Source of the DNA: Chrysoperla carnea
Taxonomy: Eukaryota > Arthropoda > Insecta > Neuroptera > Chrysopidae
Length of the DNA: 64,000 nucleotides
Direction of reading: 5' to 3'
Assembly: GCF_905475395.1 (NCBI RefSeq)
Contig: NC_058337.1
Location: 86,980,368-87,044,367, forward strand
The position numbers and the translations under genes were made by a program. Positions 3,712 to 62,785 of this stretch are shown here, piece after piece. Every line of letters begins with the position of its first letter. Position 1 is the first letter of the stretch. The notes beneath the pieces were generated by a model. The model saw only the letters and a list, made by a program, of their open reading frames with translations, had not been told where the DNA came from and searched no databases.

Positions 3712-4332
3712 AACAAGTGAAATCAAACAATTGACTGAGTTAATTGTTGAAATACCATCCATAGTCAGTGTTGATTTCTTTATCACATAACACATACAAA
3801 CATGTGACACATACATAACTAATAAAGTATAGTACATATGTAAATGACTTTATAGGTTTCTGCATTACCGACCGACATTTAGTGTATAGTTTGTACACAT
3901 ATTATGTATAAAATTTTCGCCTAATTGGCGCCCTCACGGGTAAACAGTGATGTTTACGAAAAAATGTTTCAACCAAAAGTTGTTTAATTTTTGATAAGGA
4001 ACATTTTTTACATTTAAACTTTTGTTCTATCTCTAACGGTTTATAAGATGGGTCCTACGGACCCAAGACCCAATTGACCTATGATGCTCGTTTACGAACT
4101 CGACCTCACTTTTTACGTCCTGAGTACGCTGTAAAAATTTCAGCTCGATATCTTTTTTCGTTTTCGAGTTATCGTGTCCACAGACGGACGGACAACCGGA
4201 AATGGACTAATTAGGTGATTCTATGAACACCTATGACAAAATTTTTTTCCTAGCGTCATTATTTTTAAGCGTTACAAACTTTGGACTAAACTTAATATAC
4301 TATGTATATTTCATATATGCATGGTATAAAAA
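3712..4332 (+). repeat. R1 dispersed repeat, near full-length copy
   Basis: Starts AACAAGTGAAATCAAACAAT and ends ATGGTATAAAAA. Between them are the family landmarks in order: CAATTGACTGAGTTAATTG, GCGCCCTCACGGGTAAACAG, TTTACATTTAAACTTTTG, GGGTCCTACGGACCCAAGAC, a GACGGACGGACA run, GGACTAATTAGGTGATTC and GCGTTACAAACTTTGGACT. No coding capacity; presumably non-autonomous. Confidence 0.85.
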
Positions 4333-6457: not shown

Positions 6458-7075
6458 AACAAGTGAAAACAAAGGGTTGACTGAGTTAATTGTTAAAATA
6501 CCATGTAAAGACAGTGTTATGATTACGCAATCGTTTTTTTTACGTCGTGTAAGTAAAGATAGATAGCCACTCTTACACACAAAGTTATAAGAGTAACTTT
6601 TCTCTCACTTCTTCAGTATACAGGTAGTGCAGGTACCTATATACAATACCTGTATACATATACTATATAATGTTTCTTAACTTAAATTGCTCTTTCACGG
6701 GTAAACAATGATGTTTACGAAAAAATGTTTCAAACAAAAGTTGTTTATTTTTTATAAGGAAAATTTATATTCAAACTTTTGTTATATGTCTAACGTTTTA
6801 CAAAATAACCCAATTGATCTATGTCGCTCTTTTACGAACTCCACCTCATTTTTTTACATCCTGAACACGCTTAAAAAGTTTCAGCTCGATATCTTTTTGC
6901 GTTTTTGAGTTATCGTGTTGTTAGACAGACGGACAGACAACCGAAAATGGACTAATTAGGTGATTTTAACAACTATACCAAAGTTTTGTTCGCAGTAACA
7001 ATGTTTTTAAGCGTTACAAACTTGGAACTAAACTTAGCTCACCTTGATATATTTCATATTTACATGGTACAAAAA
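6458..7075 (+). repeat. R1 dispersed repeat, near full-length copy
   Basis: Starts AACAAGTGAAAACAAAGGGT and ends near ACATGGTACAAAAAC. It keeps TTGACTGAGTTAATTGTT, CACGGGTAAACAATGATG, TTTCAAACAAAAGTTGTT, GACAGACGGACAGACAACCG and GGACTAATTAGGTGATTTT. The GGGTCCTACGGACCC segment is missing, an internal deletion relative to the copy at 3712. Confidence 0.85.
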
Positions 7076-34689: not shown

Positions 34690-35205
34690 AGTGAAAACAA
34701 ACAATTGACTGAGTTAATTGTTGAAATACTATGTACAGGCAGTGTTGATTACACTGTCATTTTTCACATGCACACATGTCACACATACATAACTGATATT
34801 CCCATATAATACAAACTATTCAATTTGCGCCTAATTTGCGCCCCCACGGATAAACAGTGATGTTTACAAAAAAATGTTTCAAACAAAAGTTGTTTATTAT
34901 AGGGAACATTTTTTACAAGATGGATTTTACGGACCCCAGACCTTGACCTATCTTGCTCATTTACGTATTCGGCTAGCCTTTTTGCGTCCTTAGCCCACTG
35001 TAAAAATTTCAACTTGATATATATTTTCGTTTTTGAGTTATCTTGTCTTCAGACGGACGGACAGGCAACCGAAAATAGACTGATTAAGTGATTTTATGAA
35101 CACCTATACCAAAATTTTGTTAGGAGCATTAATTTTTTTAAGCCTTACAAACTTGGGACTAAACTTAGTATACCTTGATATATTTCATATATCAATAGCC
35201 AAAAA
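34690..35205 (+). repeat. R1 dispersed repeat, copy with internal deletions
   Basis: Starts GTGAAAACAAACAATTGACT and ends near ATATATCAATAGCCAAAAA. It carries TTTGCGCCCCCACGGATAAA, TTTCAAACAAAAGTTGTT, CAGACGGACGGACAGGCAAC and TTAAGTGATTTTATGAACAC. It lacks much of the TTTACATTTAAACTTTTG segment. Confidence 0.85.
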
Positions 35206-37955: not shown

Positions 37956-38605
37956 AACTGTATATAAGGTGCACTAATTTTAGTCCCAAGTTAGTAACAC
38001 TTAAAAATATTGATGCAACAAACAAAATTTTGGTATTAGTGTTCATAAAATCACTTAACAGTTCATTTTTGTTTGTCTGTCTGTCTGTTCGTGGACACGA
38101 TAACTCCAAAACGAAAAGAGATATCAAGCTGAAATTTGTGTAGCGTCTTTAGGACGTAAAAGGTAAGGTTGAGGTCATAAATGTTAAGCAATATAGGTCA
38201 ATTGGGTCTTGGGGCCCTAAAAGTTTAAATATAAAAAATTTCCTTATAAAATAGTAAACAACTTTTGTTTGAAACATTTTTTCTTAAATGTTTACCCGTG
38301 AGTGCGCAAGTTAAGACAAAAGTTTGTTGTCCATTTTCTCCAAAACCATAAAAGATATTGAGTTGAAAATTTGCAGGTAGTTATCTTCAACCAATGGTTT
38401 TATGAATCATTCTCAGGAAACGAAAAAAATTCTAGAAAAATACTTTCGAAAACCAAATAAATTGGGGGTGACTGCCTCCATAATTGTGTTGGTTTTGTAC
38501 TGTTCTAATTTATAAAAAAGATAATGTAAGCACTGATATTCAACACTTTCTATACAGGGTATTTCAACAATTAACTCAGTAAATTGTTTGTTTTCACTTG
38601 TTATT
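37956..38605 (-). repeat. R1 dispersed repeat, reverse orientation
   Basis: Reads R1 backwards, from TTTTAGTCCCAAGTTAGTAA to AATTGTTTGTTTTCACTTGT. The centre (about 38320-38520) does not match other copies and may be a replaced segment. It stands head-to-head with the copy at 38615. Confidence 0.8.
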
Positions 38606-38614
38606 AATATATAT

Positions 38615-39097
38615 ACAAACAATTGACTGAGTTAATTGTTGAAATATTAATACATAGGTACTATAAAATTTGCACCTAATTAGCGCCCTCATGGGTAAAC
38701 AGTGAAGTTTACAAGAAAATGTTTCAAGAAAAAGTTGTAAATTTATATTATAAGGAACATGTTTTACATTTAAACTTTTGTTCTATCTCAAGATATTCCA
38801 TCCTGTTTACAAGATGGGTCCTACGGACCCAAGACCCAATTGACCTATGTTGCTCATTTACAAACTCTCCTCACTTTTTATGTCCTAAGCACGCTATAAA
38901 AATTTCAGCTTGATATCTTTTTTCATTTTTGAGTTACCGTGCCTACGGACAGACAGACAGCCGGAAATGGACTAATTAGGTGATTCTATGAACACCTATA
39001 CCAAATTTTTTTTCATAGCATTAATATTTTTAAGCGTTACAAACTTGGGACTAAACTTAATATACTATGTATATTTCATATATACATGGTATAAAAA
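38615..39097 (+). repeat. R1 dispersed repeat, forward orientation
   Basis: Runs from ACAAACAATTGACTGAGTTA to ACATGGTATAAAAAC and retains TTAGCGCCCTCATGGGTAAA and GGGTCCTACGGACCCAAGAC. It begins 10 bases after the end of the inverted copy before it. Confidence 0.85.
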
Positions 39098-43198: not shown

Positions 43199-44058
43199 TG
43201 TTAATTTCACAAAATAATTTAAACCTTTTTTTTATGTAATCTTTGTATTTTTAATTAAGCGAGCCATTACAAAGTTGTACTTTAAGCTCATTTTTAAATA
43301 TATCCGTTTGGAACCATTTTGAACAGTTTGATGAGTAATATTTATTGTACAACAAATCTAACATCTTTATTTGACACTAAAATATAATTAGGTTTTAGTA
43401 TGATTATTATATCTGATGTTAATGTTTATAACAAGATAAATTTCTTTTTCTGGATAGAAGAGCAAAATGCCTTGAAAGCTGTAAAAATATTTTTGTTTAT
43501 CAATTCAGCCCTATAAAACCTTACAATTCCAATAATAATGTTACTTGATAACATTAATAATAATTAAACAATAAAATATTTTGTCCAACAAAAATACTGC
43601 ACGATGAGTTTGTCTACCACCTCGAACATGCCGTACTTAAGTATTTTTATTTTTGAATACATACATGTTTCACTTTTGCTGAATTATTTAATAATTATTA
43701 ATGTTATTAAGTTGGCATAGTGTCCCACAAATAGCATAAATATGTCGTTATCATGCTCAATTGAAAACGCAGTACTTTCGAAAAACGTCGTAGAGAAAAG
43801 TTTAGTAGACTCGCCAAAAGGAAGCCAAAAATTTCAAGTATGTAATAATCATTGAACATAGAACTCTTTATATCTCACGATCTTAATTATTTCCCTGTAT
43901 TTTAAAATACACCTGTGGGTACATATGATTCATGATTTCACAAAACATTCTGTCAACATACAATTTATTTAAAATAAATAATAAAAAATTAATTTAATTT
44001 TTGAGCATTGTTAATAAATATTCAATAGGTGACAGTAGAATTAGCAAATCATATTGTT
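43199..44058. other. No gene seen
   Basis: AT-rich sequence between the small ORF and an R1 copy. No polyadenylation site, exon or repeat boundary could be assigned with confidence. Confidence 0.4.
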
Positions 44059-44622
44059 ATACCACGCATATATGTAACATGCAAGGTATACTAAATTTAG
44101 TCCCAAGTTTGTAACGATTAAAAATATTAATGCTATGAACAAAATTTTGGTATAGGTGTTTATAAAATCACCTAATTAGTCCATTTTCGGTTGTCTGTCC
44201 GTCTGTCTGCCAACACAATAACTTAAATCGAAAAAAGATATCAAGCTGAAATTTTTACAGCGTACTCAGGACGTAAAAAGTAAAGTCAAGTTCGTAAATG
44301 AGCAACATAGGGCGATTGGGTCTTGATCTATGGGTCCGTAGGACCTATCTTGAAAACCGTTAGAGATAGAACAAAAGTTTAAATGTAAAAATCTTCCTTA
44401 TAAAAAAATAAACAACTTTTGTTTGAAAATTTTTTTCGTAAACATCACTGTGTAGCCGAGAGGGCGCAAATTAGGCGCAAATTGTATACTATGTATTATA
44501 TGGGGATATCAGATACGTATGTGTGACATGTATGTGTGTGTAATGTGATAAAGTAATCAACACTGTCTATGCATGGTATTTCAACAATTAACTCAGTCAA
44601 TTGTTTGTTTTCACTTGTTTAT
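44059..44622 (-). repeat. R1 dispersed repeat, reverse full-length copy
   Basis: Runs from TATACCACGCATATATG to TTGTTTTCACTTGTTT. All landmarks are present in reverse: CCTAATTAGTCCATTTTCGG, TGTCCGTCTGTCTGCC, GGTCCGTAGGACCTATCTTG, AACAACTTTTGTTTGAAAAT and CAACAATTAACTCAGTCAAT. One of the best-preserved copies. Confidence 0.88.
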
Positions 44623-44995
44623 TACTGATTTTGTAAAAGAGGAAATTTTTACTACACTTAATGCTTAATATTTGTCTCAAATTTGATCGTTTCTTTCTAA
44701 AAGTAATTCATATCAATTTGAATGACGTTTTCAATAATATAGCACAAATATTCTAACTAATAATTGTTTTTTTATTATTTTAAATAGTTTTGAATATTAG
44801 TATTTGATCTATTTTATTATTATTCATTGACATCAATCATTTTCAATTAAATTGATTATTTCATCATAATTGAAAGCTTTAAAATTTTTCAATTCTATTT
44901 CAAAAACAAAAAAGTCTTTTTATAAATTTTCAGAGCTATTATCATCATTGAACTAACTTTTAAATATATTGCGTAATTGATATATAAGATTTACA

Positions 44996-45521
44996 TTTTT
45001 ATACCATGTATATATAAAATATATCAGGGTATACTAAGTTTGTTCCCAAGTTTGTGATGCTTAAAAATATTAATGCTACGAACATATATTTGGTATAAGT
45101 GTTCATAAAATTCATTTCCGTTTGCCCGTTCGTCTGTCTGTCCGTACGTCTTACAACACGATAACTTGAAAAGAGATATAAAAGTGAGGTCGATTTCGTA
45201 AATGAGCAACTTTGTCAATTGGGTCTTGTAAACAGTTAGAGATAGACAGAAAGTTTAAATGAAAAAAATAATCCTTATAAAAAATAAACATCTTTTTTTG
45301 AAACATTTATTCGTAAACATCACTGTTTACCCGTAAGGGCGAAAATTATATAGTATGTATTATATGGGAATATCAGATATATGTGTGTGAGTGTGGCTAT
45401 CTAAGAGTGGCTGTCTTTCTTTACTTACATAACGTACAAAAACAAACGGTTGCGTAGTAAACACTGTCTATACATGGTATTTCAACAATTAACTCAGTCA
45501 ATTGGTTATTTTCACTTGTTT
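44996..45521 (-). repeat. R1 dispersed repeat, reverse copy
   Basis: Runs from TTTTTATACCATGTATATAT to TTATTTTCACTTGTT. It lacks the part holding CCTAATTAGTCC and the GGGTCC palindrome, so it has internal deletions. Confidence 0.85.
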
Positions 45522-45639: not shown

Positions 45640-45850
45640 AAAACCAGAAATTTCAGCTTGATATCTCTTTTCATTTTTTAGTTATCGTGCTTACGGACAG
45701 ACAGACGGATAGACAACTGGAAATGTACTAATTAGGTGATTTTATGAACACCTATACCAAAATTTTGTTTGTACCATCAATATTTTTAAGCTTAACAAAC
45801 TGTGGACTAAACTTAGTATACCTTGATATATTTCATATACACGGTATAAA
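45640..45850 (+). repeat. R1 fragment, 3' part
   Basis: Contains TTTCAGCTTGATATCTCTTT, GACAGACAGACGGATAGACA, GAACACCTATACCAAAATTT and ends ACACGGTATAAAAAT. The first half of the element is absent. Confidence 0.8.
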
Positions 45851-46659
45851 AATTATTGCTGATTTGACTAAAGTGAGTGTTATGGCTTCGATACTATCAT
45901 ACTACCTTAATTAGTAGTCTGCAATAACAGTTACGTAATTTTTAGGTAATGTAATGGTTAAAGATTTTTTTGTGAACAATTCCATCGACACCTTGTAATC
46001 ATTATAATTCCAAAATTAATGTTACGCTTTTTATTGTTACTTTGTATTGAAAATTTTCTTAATAATGTTTAAATTTTATCTTATCAATGATCCATTTAAA
46101 TTTATTTATTTTAATTATTTATCAACGATGTGTTATTTATTGTTAGCAACAGAATTATAATATTTTTGAACTACTTACAAATAATTTTCAATACAGTTAT
46201 TAAATCTTTTCTTTTCTTAAAGAAAAAGTACACAATAGGAAATAAATTTCGTCAAGGCGTCTGCGCGTTTTTCTGCTGAACATACACTACTATTATAACT
46301 CGTAAAATGGTAACTTTATGCCAAAATCTAGTCAATGTTTTTATTAACCTTTTTGATTTTTTAACTAATTTTTGTTGTTGCAAAATTCGAAACATTTGTA
46401 TTATTCAAATCAAGGATCCCTAGATCCATTAGGAATTACGAATTAGGGTCATATTGAGGACTACATACGGTTGCATCCATCGGCAAATAATAATTTCAGG
46501 CTCGATTTCTATGCATATTCCCCTTCAAAAAACTTTCCTTAATCAGGATCAGGAGCATGCCAGGCAAATATCTGATTCAATTTTTTAAATCAATTTTCAT
46601 GTTGACACCATTTGAATGTTAATGTCAATTGAATCAAAATGCTTATTTCTTTTAAAATT

Positions 46660-52487: not shown

Positions 52488-52812
52488 TATATCAAAATAA
52501 ACTAATTTTGGTCTCAAGTTTTTAACGCTTAAAAATATTGATGATACGAACAAAATTTAGTATGAGTGTTCATAAAATCACCTAATGAGTCCGTTTCCGA
52601 TTGTCCGTCCGTATATCTGTCCGTTGTCCGTCCCTCTAGCCTGCTCACTTCTTAAAAAATAAGTCTGAGTTTGTAAATGAATAACATAGGTCAATTGGGT
52701 CTTGGGTTCGCAAAAGTTTAAACGTAAAAAATGTTTCTTATAAAAAAATAATCAACTTTTGTTTGAAACATTTTTTCGTATACATCACTGTGTACCCGCG
52801 AGGGTGCAAATA
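52488..52812 (-). repeat. R1 dispersed repeat, reverse, truncated
   Basis: Retains TTTTGGTCTCAAGTTTTTAA, CACCTAATGAGTCCGTTTCC, CATAGGTCAATTGGGTCTTG, CAACTTTTGTTTGAAACATT and GTGTACCCGCGAGGGTGCAA. The end carrying AATTAACTCAGTCAATTG is missing. Confidence 0.82.
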
Positions 52813-60981: not shown

Positions 60982-61759
60982 AACTAGCTGTTAAACCCGC
61001 TTCGCTGGGTTGTTTTTGCACATTTAAATATCAAAATTGTTAAATGAAAGATTTTTTTTTTAAATTCTCTCTGTATGTACGGAACAGTAAGATTTTTTTG
61101 GCCGATCCCAATATTATGTCTACACTCTCTTTGTGTACGGAAAAGTAAGGGAAAGATCGATAGAAACCCATGGAACATTCCAGAATATTCGAGAAAGTTC
61201 TAGAAAATTCGATAGAAATCCATAGAACATTCCAGAATGTTCGAGAAAATTCTAGAAAATTCGATAGAAATCCATAGAACATTCCAGAATGTTCGAGAAA
61301 ATTCGACAGAAACCCATGGAACATTCCAGATTGTTCGAGAAAGTTTGATAAAATTCAATAAAAATCCATACAACATTCGAGAAAGTTCTAGAAAATTCTA
61401 TAGAAATCCATAGAACATTCCAGAATGTTCGAGAAAATTCTAGAAAATTCGATAGAAATCCATGGAACATTCCAGAATTTTCGAGAAAAATGGAAAGACA
61501 TTTGCGCCAGTAGCGCCATCTAGTGAAAATTGTACTATTGACAGTGGCGCCATCTATTGAAAATTATTAGAACTATTTTTTAAATCTATTTTCTATGAAT
61601 TCCTAGATCATTTTTAATTCCACCCCCACCAAACTCCCTTATTCACAATGGGAGCCTAAGGGCTACCCAATGACATAATCCCCTACCGAAGGTCAATGGT
61701 TAGTTTTAGGGAAAATCGGGGACATACAAACAAACACTCTCTTTTTATATATATAGATT
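60982..61759 (+). repeat. Interspersed element carrying a heat-shock-element minisatellite
   Basis: Begins CTAGCTGTTAAACCCGCTTC followed by GCTGGG and ends ACTCTCTTTTTATATATATAG. Inside are two copies of a CTCTxTGTxTGTACGGAAxAGTAAG segment (about 61067 and 61125), the GAA/TTC array (61173-61487) and two GCGCCATCTAxTGAAAATT direct repeats (61523 and 61550). No reading frame of note. The class is uncertain; non-LTR-derived or Helitron-like are possible. Confidence 0.6.
61173..61487. promoter_or_regulatory. Array of heat-shock elements (about 45 nGAAn modules)
   Basis: Seven tandem units start at 61173, 61225, 61277, 61319, 61371, 61413 and 61465, spaced 52 or 42 bases. Each full unit is GAA-nn-TTC repeated every 5 bases for eight modules, then a 14-base spacer like GATAGAAATCCATA. 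Inverted nGAAn pentamers at 5-base intervals are the binding site of heat-shock factor trimers (established). The 42-base units have lost exactly two modules. Several units contain the core TTCTAGAA. Whether HSF binds here is not shown. Confidence 0.75.
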
Positions 61760-62251: not shown

Positions 62252-62785
62252 AGTCTCTGATCTCATATCGTAGCAAATTTAGTCTACTTTAAAAACATCT
62301 TGAAAAAGTACTTCAAAAACAACCCGTTTAGGGTTATAATTGCCTAAATCTGAAAAAAATTTTCACGGATTTTCTCGATTTTTGACAAAGTTGCATTCGA
62401 CGCTCGAAGTCACAAACTTGGATTATTCATTGGTACATCATCTTAAACAAGTTTGCTAAAAATCAGAACTACCGGATTTGACGTTAGCTCTGATGTATGA
62501 AGTTAGTTGGAAAGTATTGGATCTACAGAGTCCATTCTCGTCTCATATTGTAGCAAATTTAGTCTACTTAAAAATGTTCTTCTAGTCTACTTCTAAAAAT
62601 GTTCCAGAATTTATCAAAAACCTAGCCTTTTAGGGTTATAATCGCCAAAATCCAAAATTTTCACGGATTTTTCGATTTTTGACAATGTTGCATTCAGCGC
62701 TCGAGATCACAAACTTGGATTATTCATTAGATCAACATCATAGACAAATCTCCAAAAAATCAGAACTACCGGATTTGATGCACAC
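62252..62785. repeat. Tandem duplication, about 280-bp period
   Basis: TCTCATATCGTAGCAAATTT near 62261 recurs as TCTCATATTGTAGCAAATTT near 62541. Both units continue with TTTAGGGTTATAAT, TTTTCACGGATTTT, GATTTTTGACAA, GTTGCATTC, TCACAAACTTGGATTATTCA and CAGAACTACCGGATTTGA. Confidence 0.8.

What the first reader, a model, noticed from the sequence alone, without database searches (positions are those of the whole stretch)
61173..61487. Dense tandem array of heat-shock elements inside an interspersed repeat
Seven units of alternating GAA and TTC triplets at strict 5-base spacing give about 45 intact modules in 315 bases, far more than a normal heat-shock promoter. Length differences between units are exactly 10 bases (two modules, one helical turn). 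Decayed modules sit in register, so the array has been copied as modules. The surrounding sequence looks like a mobile repeat. Helitrons that spread HSE tandem repeats and rewire the heat-shock response are known in Caenorhabditis, so this may be an independent insect case, or an HSF sink.
Basis: partly seen in the sequence, partly recalled or inferred. Interest (0 to 1): 0.8.

Follow-up and report, generated by a model that had tools for sequence, protein, structure and literature searches.

The report
Mobile element carrying heat-shock switch arrays
A young family of jumping DNA elements (Helitrons) in this animal genome carries dense arrays of sites that look like heat-shock-factor binding sites, and a related Helitron that still encodes the jumping enzyme has a heat-shock-like promoter, which suggests a heat-responsive mobile element of a kind described so far in worms and wheat.

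Summary
The array is real: 50 GAA/TTC triplets, 40 in alternating 5-bp runs (8,8,6,5,8,5); 13 four-module matches against 0.02 expected. It fills 42% of a 774-bp non-autonomous Helitron on the minus strand (61757 to 60984). Three genome searches gave 305-313 candidates each, 40 scored each; I estimate about 300 copies. Of 39 fetched copies with both ends (from the best-scoring ones), 38 start A|TC, 37 end CTRR|T, and flanks show no target-site duplication; they differ from their majority by about 1%. The 7-module pattern occurs 914 times per strand, reversed control 0. A second, coding Helitron (1460-aa frame) shares the terminus type and has a 4-module HSE 19 bp before a TATA box and 460 bp before the ATG; this HSE occurs at 16 places, 13 just upstream of a Helitron Rep domain. 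HSF binding and heat induction are untested; HSE cores are not clearly better kept than spacers; no coding Helitron with this family's exact ends was found. Closest known: Caenorhabditis HSE-Helitrons (2019), whose survey saw no such clusters elsewhere, and a heat-activated wheat Helitron (2026).

The parts
60984..61757 (-). Non-autonomous Helitron, 774 bp, 5' end at 61757, 3' end at 60984
   Evidence: Boundaries shared by 39 copies whose flanks differ, bar one pair; A|TC and CTAG|T at this copy
61735..61757 (-). 5' terminus TCTATATATATAAAAAGAGAGTG, preceded by host A
   Evidence: the 118-bp 5' end is 100% identical at the 40 scored places of 310 candidates
60994..61011 (-). 18-nt 3' subterminal palindrome AACCCAGCGAAGCGGGTT, 10 nt from the 3' end
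   Evidence: its single-strand fold is weak
60984..60987 (-). 3' terminus CTAG, followed by host T
61163..61489 (.). Array of heat-shock elements: seven units of 52 or 42 bp, the last truncated; 50 GAA/TTC triplets in 61173-61487
61513..61526 (-). CTCF-like motif (consensus recalled), 1 mismatch
61547..61560 (-). Second CTCF-like motif (consensus recalled), 2 mismatches

Best explanation
The array is the internal minisatellite of a young, recently mobile, non-autonomous Helitron family of roughly 300 copies. Each array is a dense cluster of HSF-type sites (nGAAn inverted repeats). Shown: Helitron ends, dispersal, low divergence of the copies read, HSE grammar, and a coding Helitron of the same terminus type in the same genome with an HSE and TATA box upstream of its Rep/helicase frame. 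Inferred: HSF trimers bind the arrays on heat or proteotoxic stress and act as enhancers on neighbouring genes; the coding Helitron is transcribed under heat, and Rep made then mobilises elements of this type. Arrays grow and shrink by decamer and unit slippage or unequal exchange, or during rolling-circle copying.
For: Termini: A|TC 38 of 39, CTRR|T 37 of 39, no duplication of flanks (p=0.74 against permuted flanks). Copies: 305-313 candidates in three searches, 40 scored in each. HSE pattern 914 per strand, control 0. Each of 39 copies keeps 29-79 modules in runs of 4 or more, median 40. Spacers inside the window's 8-module runs are near random (identity 0.39) while cores are intact; 21 control runs from prokaryote and viral contigs have mean 0.85, minimum 0.56 (L003 and L009 hold the same sequence). 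In the array 23 of 23 TTC are followed by NA and 24 of 27 GAA are preceded by A. Coding Helitron with HSE and TATA; this HSE at 16 places, 13 of them 1.5-1.7 kb upstream of a PF14214 hit in the right orientation (one search compared). Two hsp70 intergenic regions carry 3-module HSEs of the same kind.
Against: No binding or expression data. Core versus spacer: within the window array cells lean to core (4 of 147 against 15 of 180, p=0.03) but columns do not (p=0.35); among 184 of 230 units of 39 copies columns do not (p=0.59), and rare variants are not fewer in cores (30 of 4416 cells) than in spacers (20 of 5152; my tally). None of 7 coding loci carries this family's 60-bp ends. The HSE promoter was found in one coding family only: 4 other whole loci and 5 of 6 guessed upstream stretches lack a run of 3 modules. 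Likeness of that promoter's HSE to the array is inconclusive: 0.4% to 13% of simulations reach it, by stretch and fixed positions. Runs with the same pattern occur in organisms without HSF.
Confidence: 0.68

Rival explanations
1. An ordinary Helitron internal minisatellite: a palindromic decamer was amplified by slippage, and its HSE likeness has no function.
For: Helitron relatives can hold internal tandem repeats (passages of PMC4067079). Runs with the HSE pattern occur in HSF-free genomes; 10 of 21 control runs of 8 or more modules are perfectly uniform decamer repeats. No clear core conservation among copies.
Against: Spacers inside the runs are near random while cores are intact, lower than any of 21 control runs. 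The grammar TTC(T/G)AGAA matches the host's hsp70 regions. A coding Helitron of the same terminus type has an HSE promoter.
Confidence: 0.22
2. The array acts as an HSF sink: with some 40 modules per copy over about 300 copies it titrates HSF and blunts or delays the heat response.
For: 914 seven-module matches per strand; 1643 modules in runs of 4 or more in 39 copies.
Against: No binding data. Copies may be silenced. In C. elegans, Helitron HSEs are associated with heat-induced neighbouring genes (PMC6927752, abstract and sections 6, 9, 12).
Confidence: 0.06
3. The array works at the RNA level: transcripts fold into long hairpins that feed small-RNA silencing.
For: RNA fold of the array has z = -7.6.
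Against: Alternating GAA/TTC is self-complementary by construction, so the fold follows from the HSE grammar.
Confidence: 0.04

Closest known systems
HSE-carrying Helitrons of Caenorhabditis (Garrigues et al. 2019, eLife, PMC6927752; abstract, passages and sections 6, 9, 12 seen)
   Same: Helitrons hold high-density, partly tandem HSE clusters (some copies with more than 100 HSEs) dispersed in the genome.
   Different: Here the genome is 559 Mb (C. elegans 100 Mb) and lacks SL1; the paper's survey saw no such clusters outside Caenorhabditis. The scan pattern as printed there, NGAANNTCCNNGGAN, has 0 matches in this window. Kinship to the worm elements was not tested. HSF binding is shown there, not here.
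Xuan-Feng Helitrons of wheat (Nat Plants 2026, PMC13286980; abstract and passages seen)
   Same: Coding Helitron with an nTTCnnGAAn element in its promoter, plus a non-autonomous partner that it mobilises under heat.
   Different: No HSE array in the non-autonomous element is mentioned in the passages seen; heat activation and mobilisation are shown there by experiment.
Hel-2 and Lep1 Helitrons of insects (PMC4344730, PMC4038834; passages seen)
   Same: 5'-TC, 3' hairpin, A/T insertion; the 3' CTAG terminus is shared with Hel-2 (Lep1 ends CTRY, with CTRR after its acquired sequence).
   Different: No HSE array is mentioned in the passages seen; sequence kinship not tested.
HSF1-activated human satellite III (PMC9032817; passages seen)
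   Same: Tandem repeat with putative HSEs, driven by HSF1.
   Different: Pericentric satellite, not a mobile element.

Membership tests
Canonical Helitron (definition from passages of PMC4067079) | 5' TC and insertion after host A | tested here: met
   38 of 39 copies; in six I walked back over a longer TA run to the TC
Canonical Helitron | 3' CTRR followed by host T | tested here: met
   37 of 39 copies
Canonical Helitron | 16-20 nt palindrome about 11 bp from the 3' end | tested here: met
   18 nt, 10 nt from the end; but the fold is weak, z -0.81 and -1.39, and hairpin-plus-CTRRT sites occur about 2.25 times per 64 kb by chance in 20 simulations (one in this window)
Canonical Helitron | No target-site duplication | tested here: met
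   Own left-right flank scores do not exceed permuted ones in 39 copies, p=0.74; the window copy alone has an imperfect flanking repeat matched by 188 of 5000 AT-matched pairs
Canonical Helitron | Rep/helicase supplied by an autonomous member | tested here: inconclusive
   64 Helitron_like_N matches in the genome; the 5.3-kb coding family shares terminus type and 15 of the first 16 nt, but none of 7 coding loci has the 60-bp ends
HSE-distributing Helitrons as in Caenorhabditis | High-density HSE clusters inside Helitrons | tested here: met
HSE-distributing Helitrons as in Caenorhabditis | HSF occupancy and heat induction of neighbouring genes | not testable with these tools
   No ChIP or RNA data here
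Heat-activated Helitron pair (wheat type) | Heat-response element in the promoter of the coding Helitron | tested here: met
   HSE 19 bp before TATATAAG, 460 bp before the ATG in L111; 13 of 16 genome matches upstream of Rep. By sequence only; promoter activity not tested
Heat-activated Helitron pair (wheat type) | Coding element mobilises the non-autonomous one under heat | not testable with these tools
   Needs experiment

The most novel reading that the evidence does not exclude
An independent, recently active heat-wired Helitron system outside Caenorhabditis: a coding Helitron switched on by HSF through an hsp-like promoter, and a non-autonomous lineage that turned the same kind of site into an array of about 40 modules and scattered some 300 HSF enhancers, about half of those read with twin CTCF-like sites, over the genome, so that heat both moves the element and redraws the heat-shock gene set. 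If so, HSE-loading is a recurrent Helitron strategy rather than a Caenorhabditis accident.
Probability: 0.35. Interest if true: 0.85.

Novelty: new member of a known kind. Interest (0 to 1): 0.74.

Why it matters
The 2019 survey concluded that the link of Helitrons with many HSEs may be restricted to Caenorhabditis. Another host with such clusters, plus a coding Helitron bearing an HSE promoter, makes the idea that Helitrons exploit the heat-shock response testable as a recurrent strategy, and offers some 300 natural insertions of closely similar sequence for testing how added HSF sites change gene expression.

Tried and rejected
Coding repeat: open minus-strand frames cross the array, but the 52-bp period is not a multiple of 3. 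Retroelement reading with a 15-bp target duplication: suggested by the window copy's flanks, rejected by 39 copies. Rfam: no match at gathering scores. Array derived from the coding Helitron's promoter: undecided. A first test gave 672 of 5000 simulations reaching the observed 20 of 23; the stretch that BLAST picked, 21 of 23, is reached by 20 or 23 of 5000 with 12 positions fixed and 210 of 5000 with 17 fixed. Core selection: not clearly detected. Relatives in IMG/VR: no exact match to patterns from the element's ends or to recalled moth Helitron ends; since the recalled moth ends are absent too, this says nothing about other insects. Literature strings: one search found no paper; none of the rows listed (30 of 69, 15 of 17 papers) looked related. 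Keyword searches showed no non-nematode animal HSE-Helitron in the rows listed (20 of 31 papers shown, 20 of 192). Taxon: 133 forward and 190 reverse (TTAGG)6 matches, those listed scattered inside C1, no conclusion; SL1 0 matches.

Full report
Observation. The stretch 61173-61487 holds 50 GAA or TTC triplets, 40 of them in strictly alternating runs at 5-bp spacing (8, 8, 6, 5, 8, 5). A 4-module HSE pattern matches 13 times in the 64-kb window, all inside the array, against 0.02 expected from shuffles. Units are 52, 52, 42, 52, 42 and 52 bp plus a truncated seventh; the two 42-bp units can each be aligned with one decamer missing, at different places, and units 2 and 6 are identical.

What carries it. 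On the minus strand the repeat reads A|TCTATATATATAAAAAGAGAG ... AACCCAGCGAAGCGGGTT-TAACAG-CTAG|T, 774 bp. A search of the window's own genome (559 Mb, 337 contigs) gave 313 candidates, of which the best 40 were scored, with matches on C1-C6. I fetched 40 stretches at matches of that list; one overlaps another (L091 and L066) and was dropped. Of 40 copies examined (window plus 39), 39 have both ends (L093 shows no 5' end). In these, 38 of 39 begin A|TC and 37 of 39 end CTRR|T; in six the TA run behind TC was longer and I walked back to the TC. The exceptions are L073 at the 5' side, L066 and L094 at the 3' side. L071 and L101 share both flanks and so look like one insertion duplicated. Left and right flanks of a copy are no more alike than permuted ones (p=0.74), so there is no sign of a target-site duplication. 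These are the marks of canonical Helitrons given in passages of PMC4067079. The hairpin fold itself is weak.

Number and age. Three searches give 305-313 candidates each, of which 40 were scored each time; the 118-bp 5' end is 100% identical at its 40 scored places. Over the 39 copies, which come from the best-scoring matches and so lean to the young and similar, divergence from their majority has mean 1.75% and median 1.0% (5' part), mean 1.4% and median 0.8% (3' part). The pattern of seven modules occurs 914 times on each strand, reversed-pattern control 0. The rows listed fall at 17 places on C1, of which 15 lie beside an element match or end listed. From this I estimate roughly 300 loaded copies; most were not read.

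Is it HSE or just a decamer repeat? Seven-module runs also occur in 41 stretches of prokaryote genomes and 9 of viral contigs, some of them the same sequence. Among 21 control runs of 8 or more modules, 10 are perfectly uniform decamer repeats; spacer identity has mean 0.85 and minimum 0.56 (L003 and L009 hold the same sequence). In the window's three 8-module runs it is 0.39 with intact cores. The three are copies of one unit, so this is one observation, and it was picked because the cores looked intact. In the array 23 of 23 TTC are followed by NA and 24 of 27 GAA are preceded by A. Two divergent hsp70 intergenic regions of the same genome hold 3-module HSEs of the same grammar: two in L124, one in L125. 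Against function: in the window array deviations are fewer in core cells (4 of 147) than in other cells (15 of 180; p=0.03) but not by column (p=0.35). Among 184 units of 52 bp from 39 copies (46 of 230 units had another length and were left out), core columns deviate at 3.9% and others at 9.2% per site, not significant by column (p=0.59), and rare variants are not fewer in cores (30 of 4416 cells) than in other columns (20 of 5152; my tally from the table). Purifying selection on the cores is thus not shown.

The coding Helitrons. The genome has 64 Helitron_like_N matches. Three fetched loci (L111-L113) hold a 5.3-kb element, 99.76-99.91% alike, with ends A|TCTATATATATAATAAAAC and CCCGGGCGAAGCCGGGTTTTTAAGCTAG|T and an open frame of 1460, 1460 and 1418 aa from the first Met. 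Each holds a 4-module HSE; in L111 it is 334 bp from the 5' end, 19 bp before TATATAAG and 460 bp before the ATG. A 25-bp HSE string occurs at 16 places in the genome; comparing coordinates, 13 of 16 lie 1.5-1.7 kb upstream of a Helitron_like_N match in the right orientation. Four other whole loci (L114-L117) and five of six further stretches, placed by guess upstream of Rep, lack a 3-module run; the sixth belongs to the same family. None of the 7 whole loci carries the 60-bp ends of the array-bearing family, so partnership is a guess from terminus likeness (15 of the first 16 nt). Whether the array descends from such a promoter is undecided: 0.4% to 13% of simulations reach the observed likeness, depending on the stretch and on the positions held fixed.

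Mechanism. Most likely HSF binds the arrays under stress and the element is a mobile cluster of HSF sites; the coding relative is probably heat-induced. Binding, induction and any effect on genes are inferred. In this window the nearest recognised gene is a GDE1-like phosphodiesterase (C2_GDE1 and GDPD domains, 40.3-41.9 kb), about 19 kb away. Scans of 49.0-64.0 kb on both strands gave no Pfam domain; the minus strand of 41.5-49.0 kb and what lies right of the window were not scanned. I therefore name no target gene for this copy.

Known work. C. elegans Helitrons carry HSE clusters that bind HSF-1 and are linked to heat-induced neighbouring genes; the authors found no such clusters in the other surveyed animals (PMC6927752: abstract, passages, sections 6, 9 and 12). 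As printed, their cross-species pattern was NGAANNTCCNNGGAN, which has no match in this window; if it was run so, this locus would have been missed, but it may be a misprint. Later Caenorhabditis work agrees on HSF-1 sites in Helitrons and reports one neighbour, fbxa-215, that goes down after heat shock (passages of PMC12062965 and PMC8896005). A wheat Helitron with an nTTCnnGAAn promoter element is heat-activated and mobilises a non-autonomous partner (PMC13286980, passages). The present system joins an HSE array and an HSE promoter in another host. My searches of the paper library listed no insect or other non-nematode animal case; only 20 of 192 papers were shown, 20 of 31.

Limits. Most candidates were neither scored nor read. 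A search for the HSF gene did not complete.

Noticed in passing
window 61513-61560: Two CTCF-like motifs (consensus recalled, not from a call) sit 34 bp apart beside the HSE array; 18 of 39 copies keep two or more TAGATGGCGC cores.
   Followed up: partly
L111:3054-3531 and 16 genome places: A coding Helitron family has a 4-module HSE and a TATA box upstream of its Rep/helicase frame, like a heat-shock promoter.
   Followed up: yes
window 3907-4332, 6651-7075, 34690-35192, 37961-38325, 38662-39097, 44053-44489, 44995-45521, 45648-45853, 52488-52811: Another interspersed repeat family with several copies in the window, about 65-90% alike in self-comparison.
   Followed up: no
window 62261-62481 and 62541-62778: Two-copy duplication about 280 bp apart, 77% alike, just beyond the Helitron.
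   Followed up: no
G000 C4:64682012-64688106, C4:68143465-68149299, C2:36862179-36867226: Three divergently arranged hsp70 pairs with uninterrupted frames.
   Followed up: partly
   Followed up: no
L004:4003-4050, L003:497-531: HSE-like runs with varied spacers (identity 0.56 and 0.67) in IMG/VR contigs, unlike the 10 of 21 control runs that are uniform decamer repeats.
   Followed up: no
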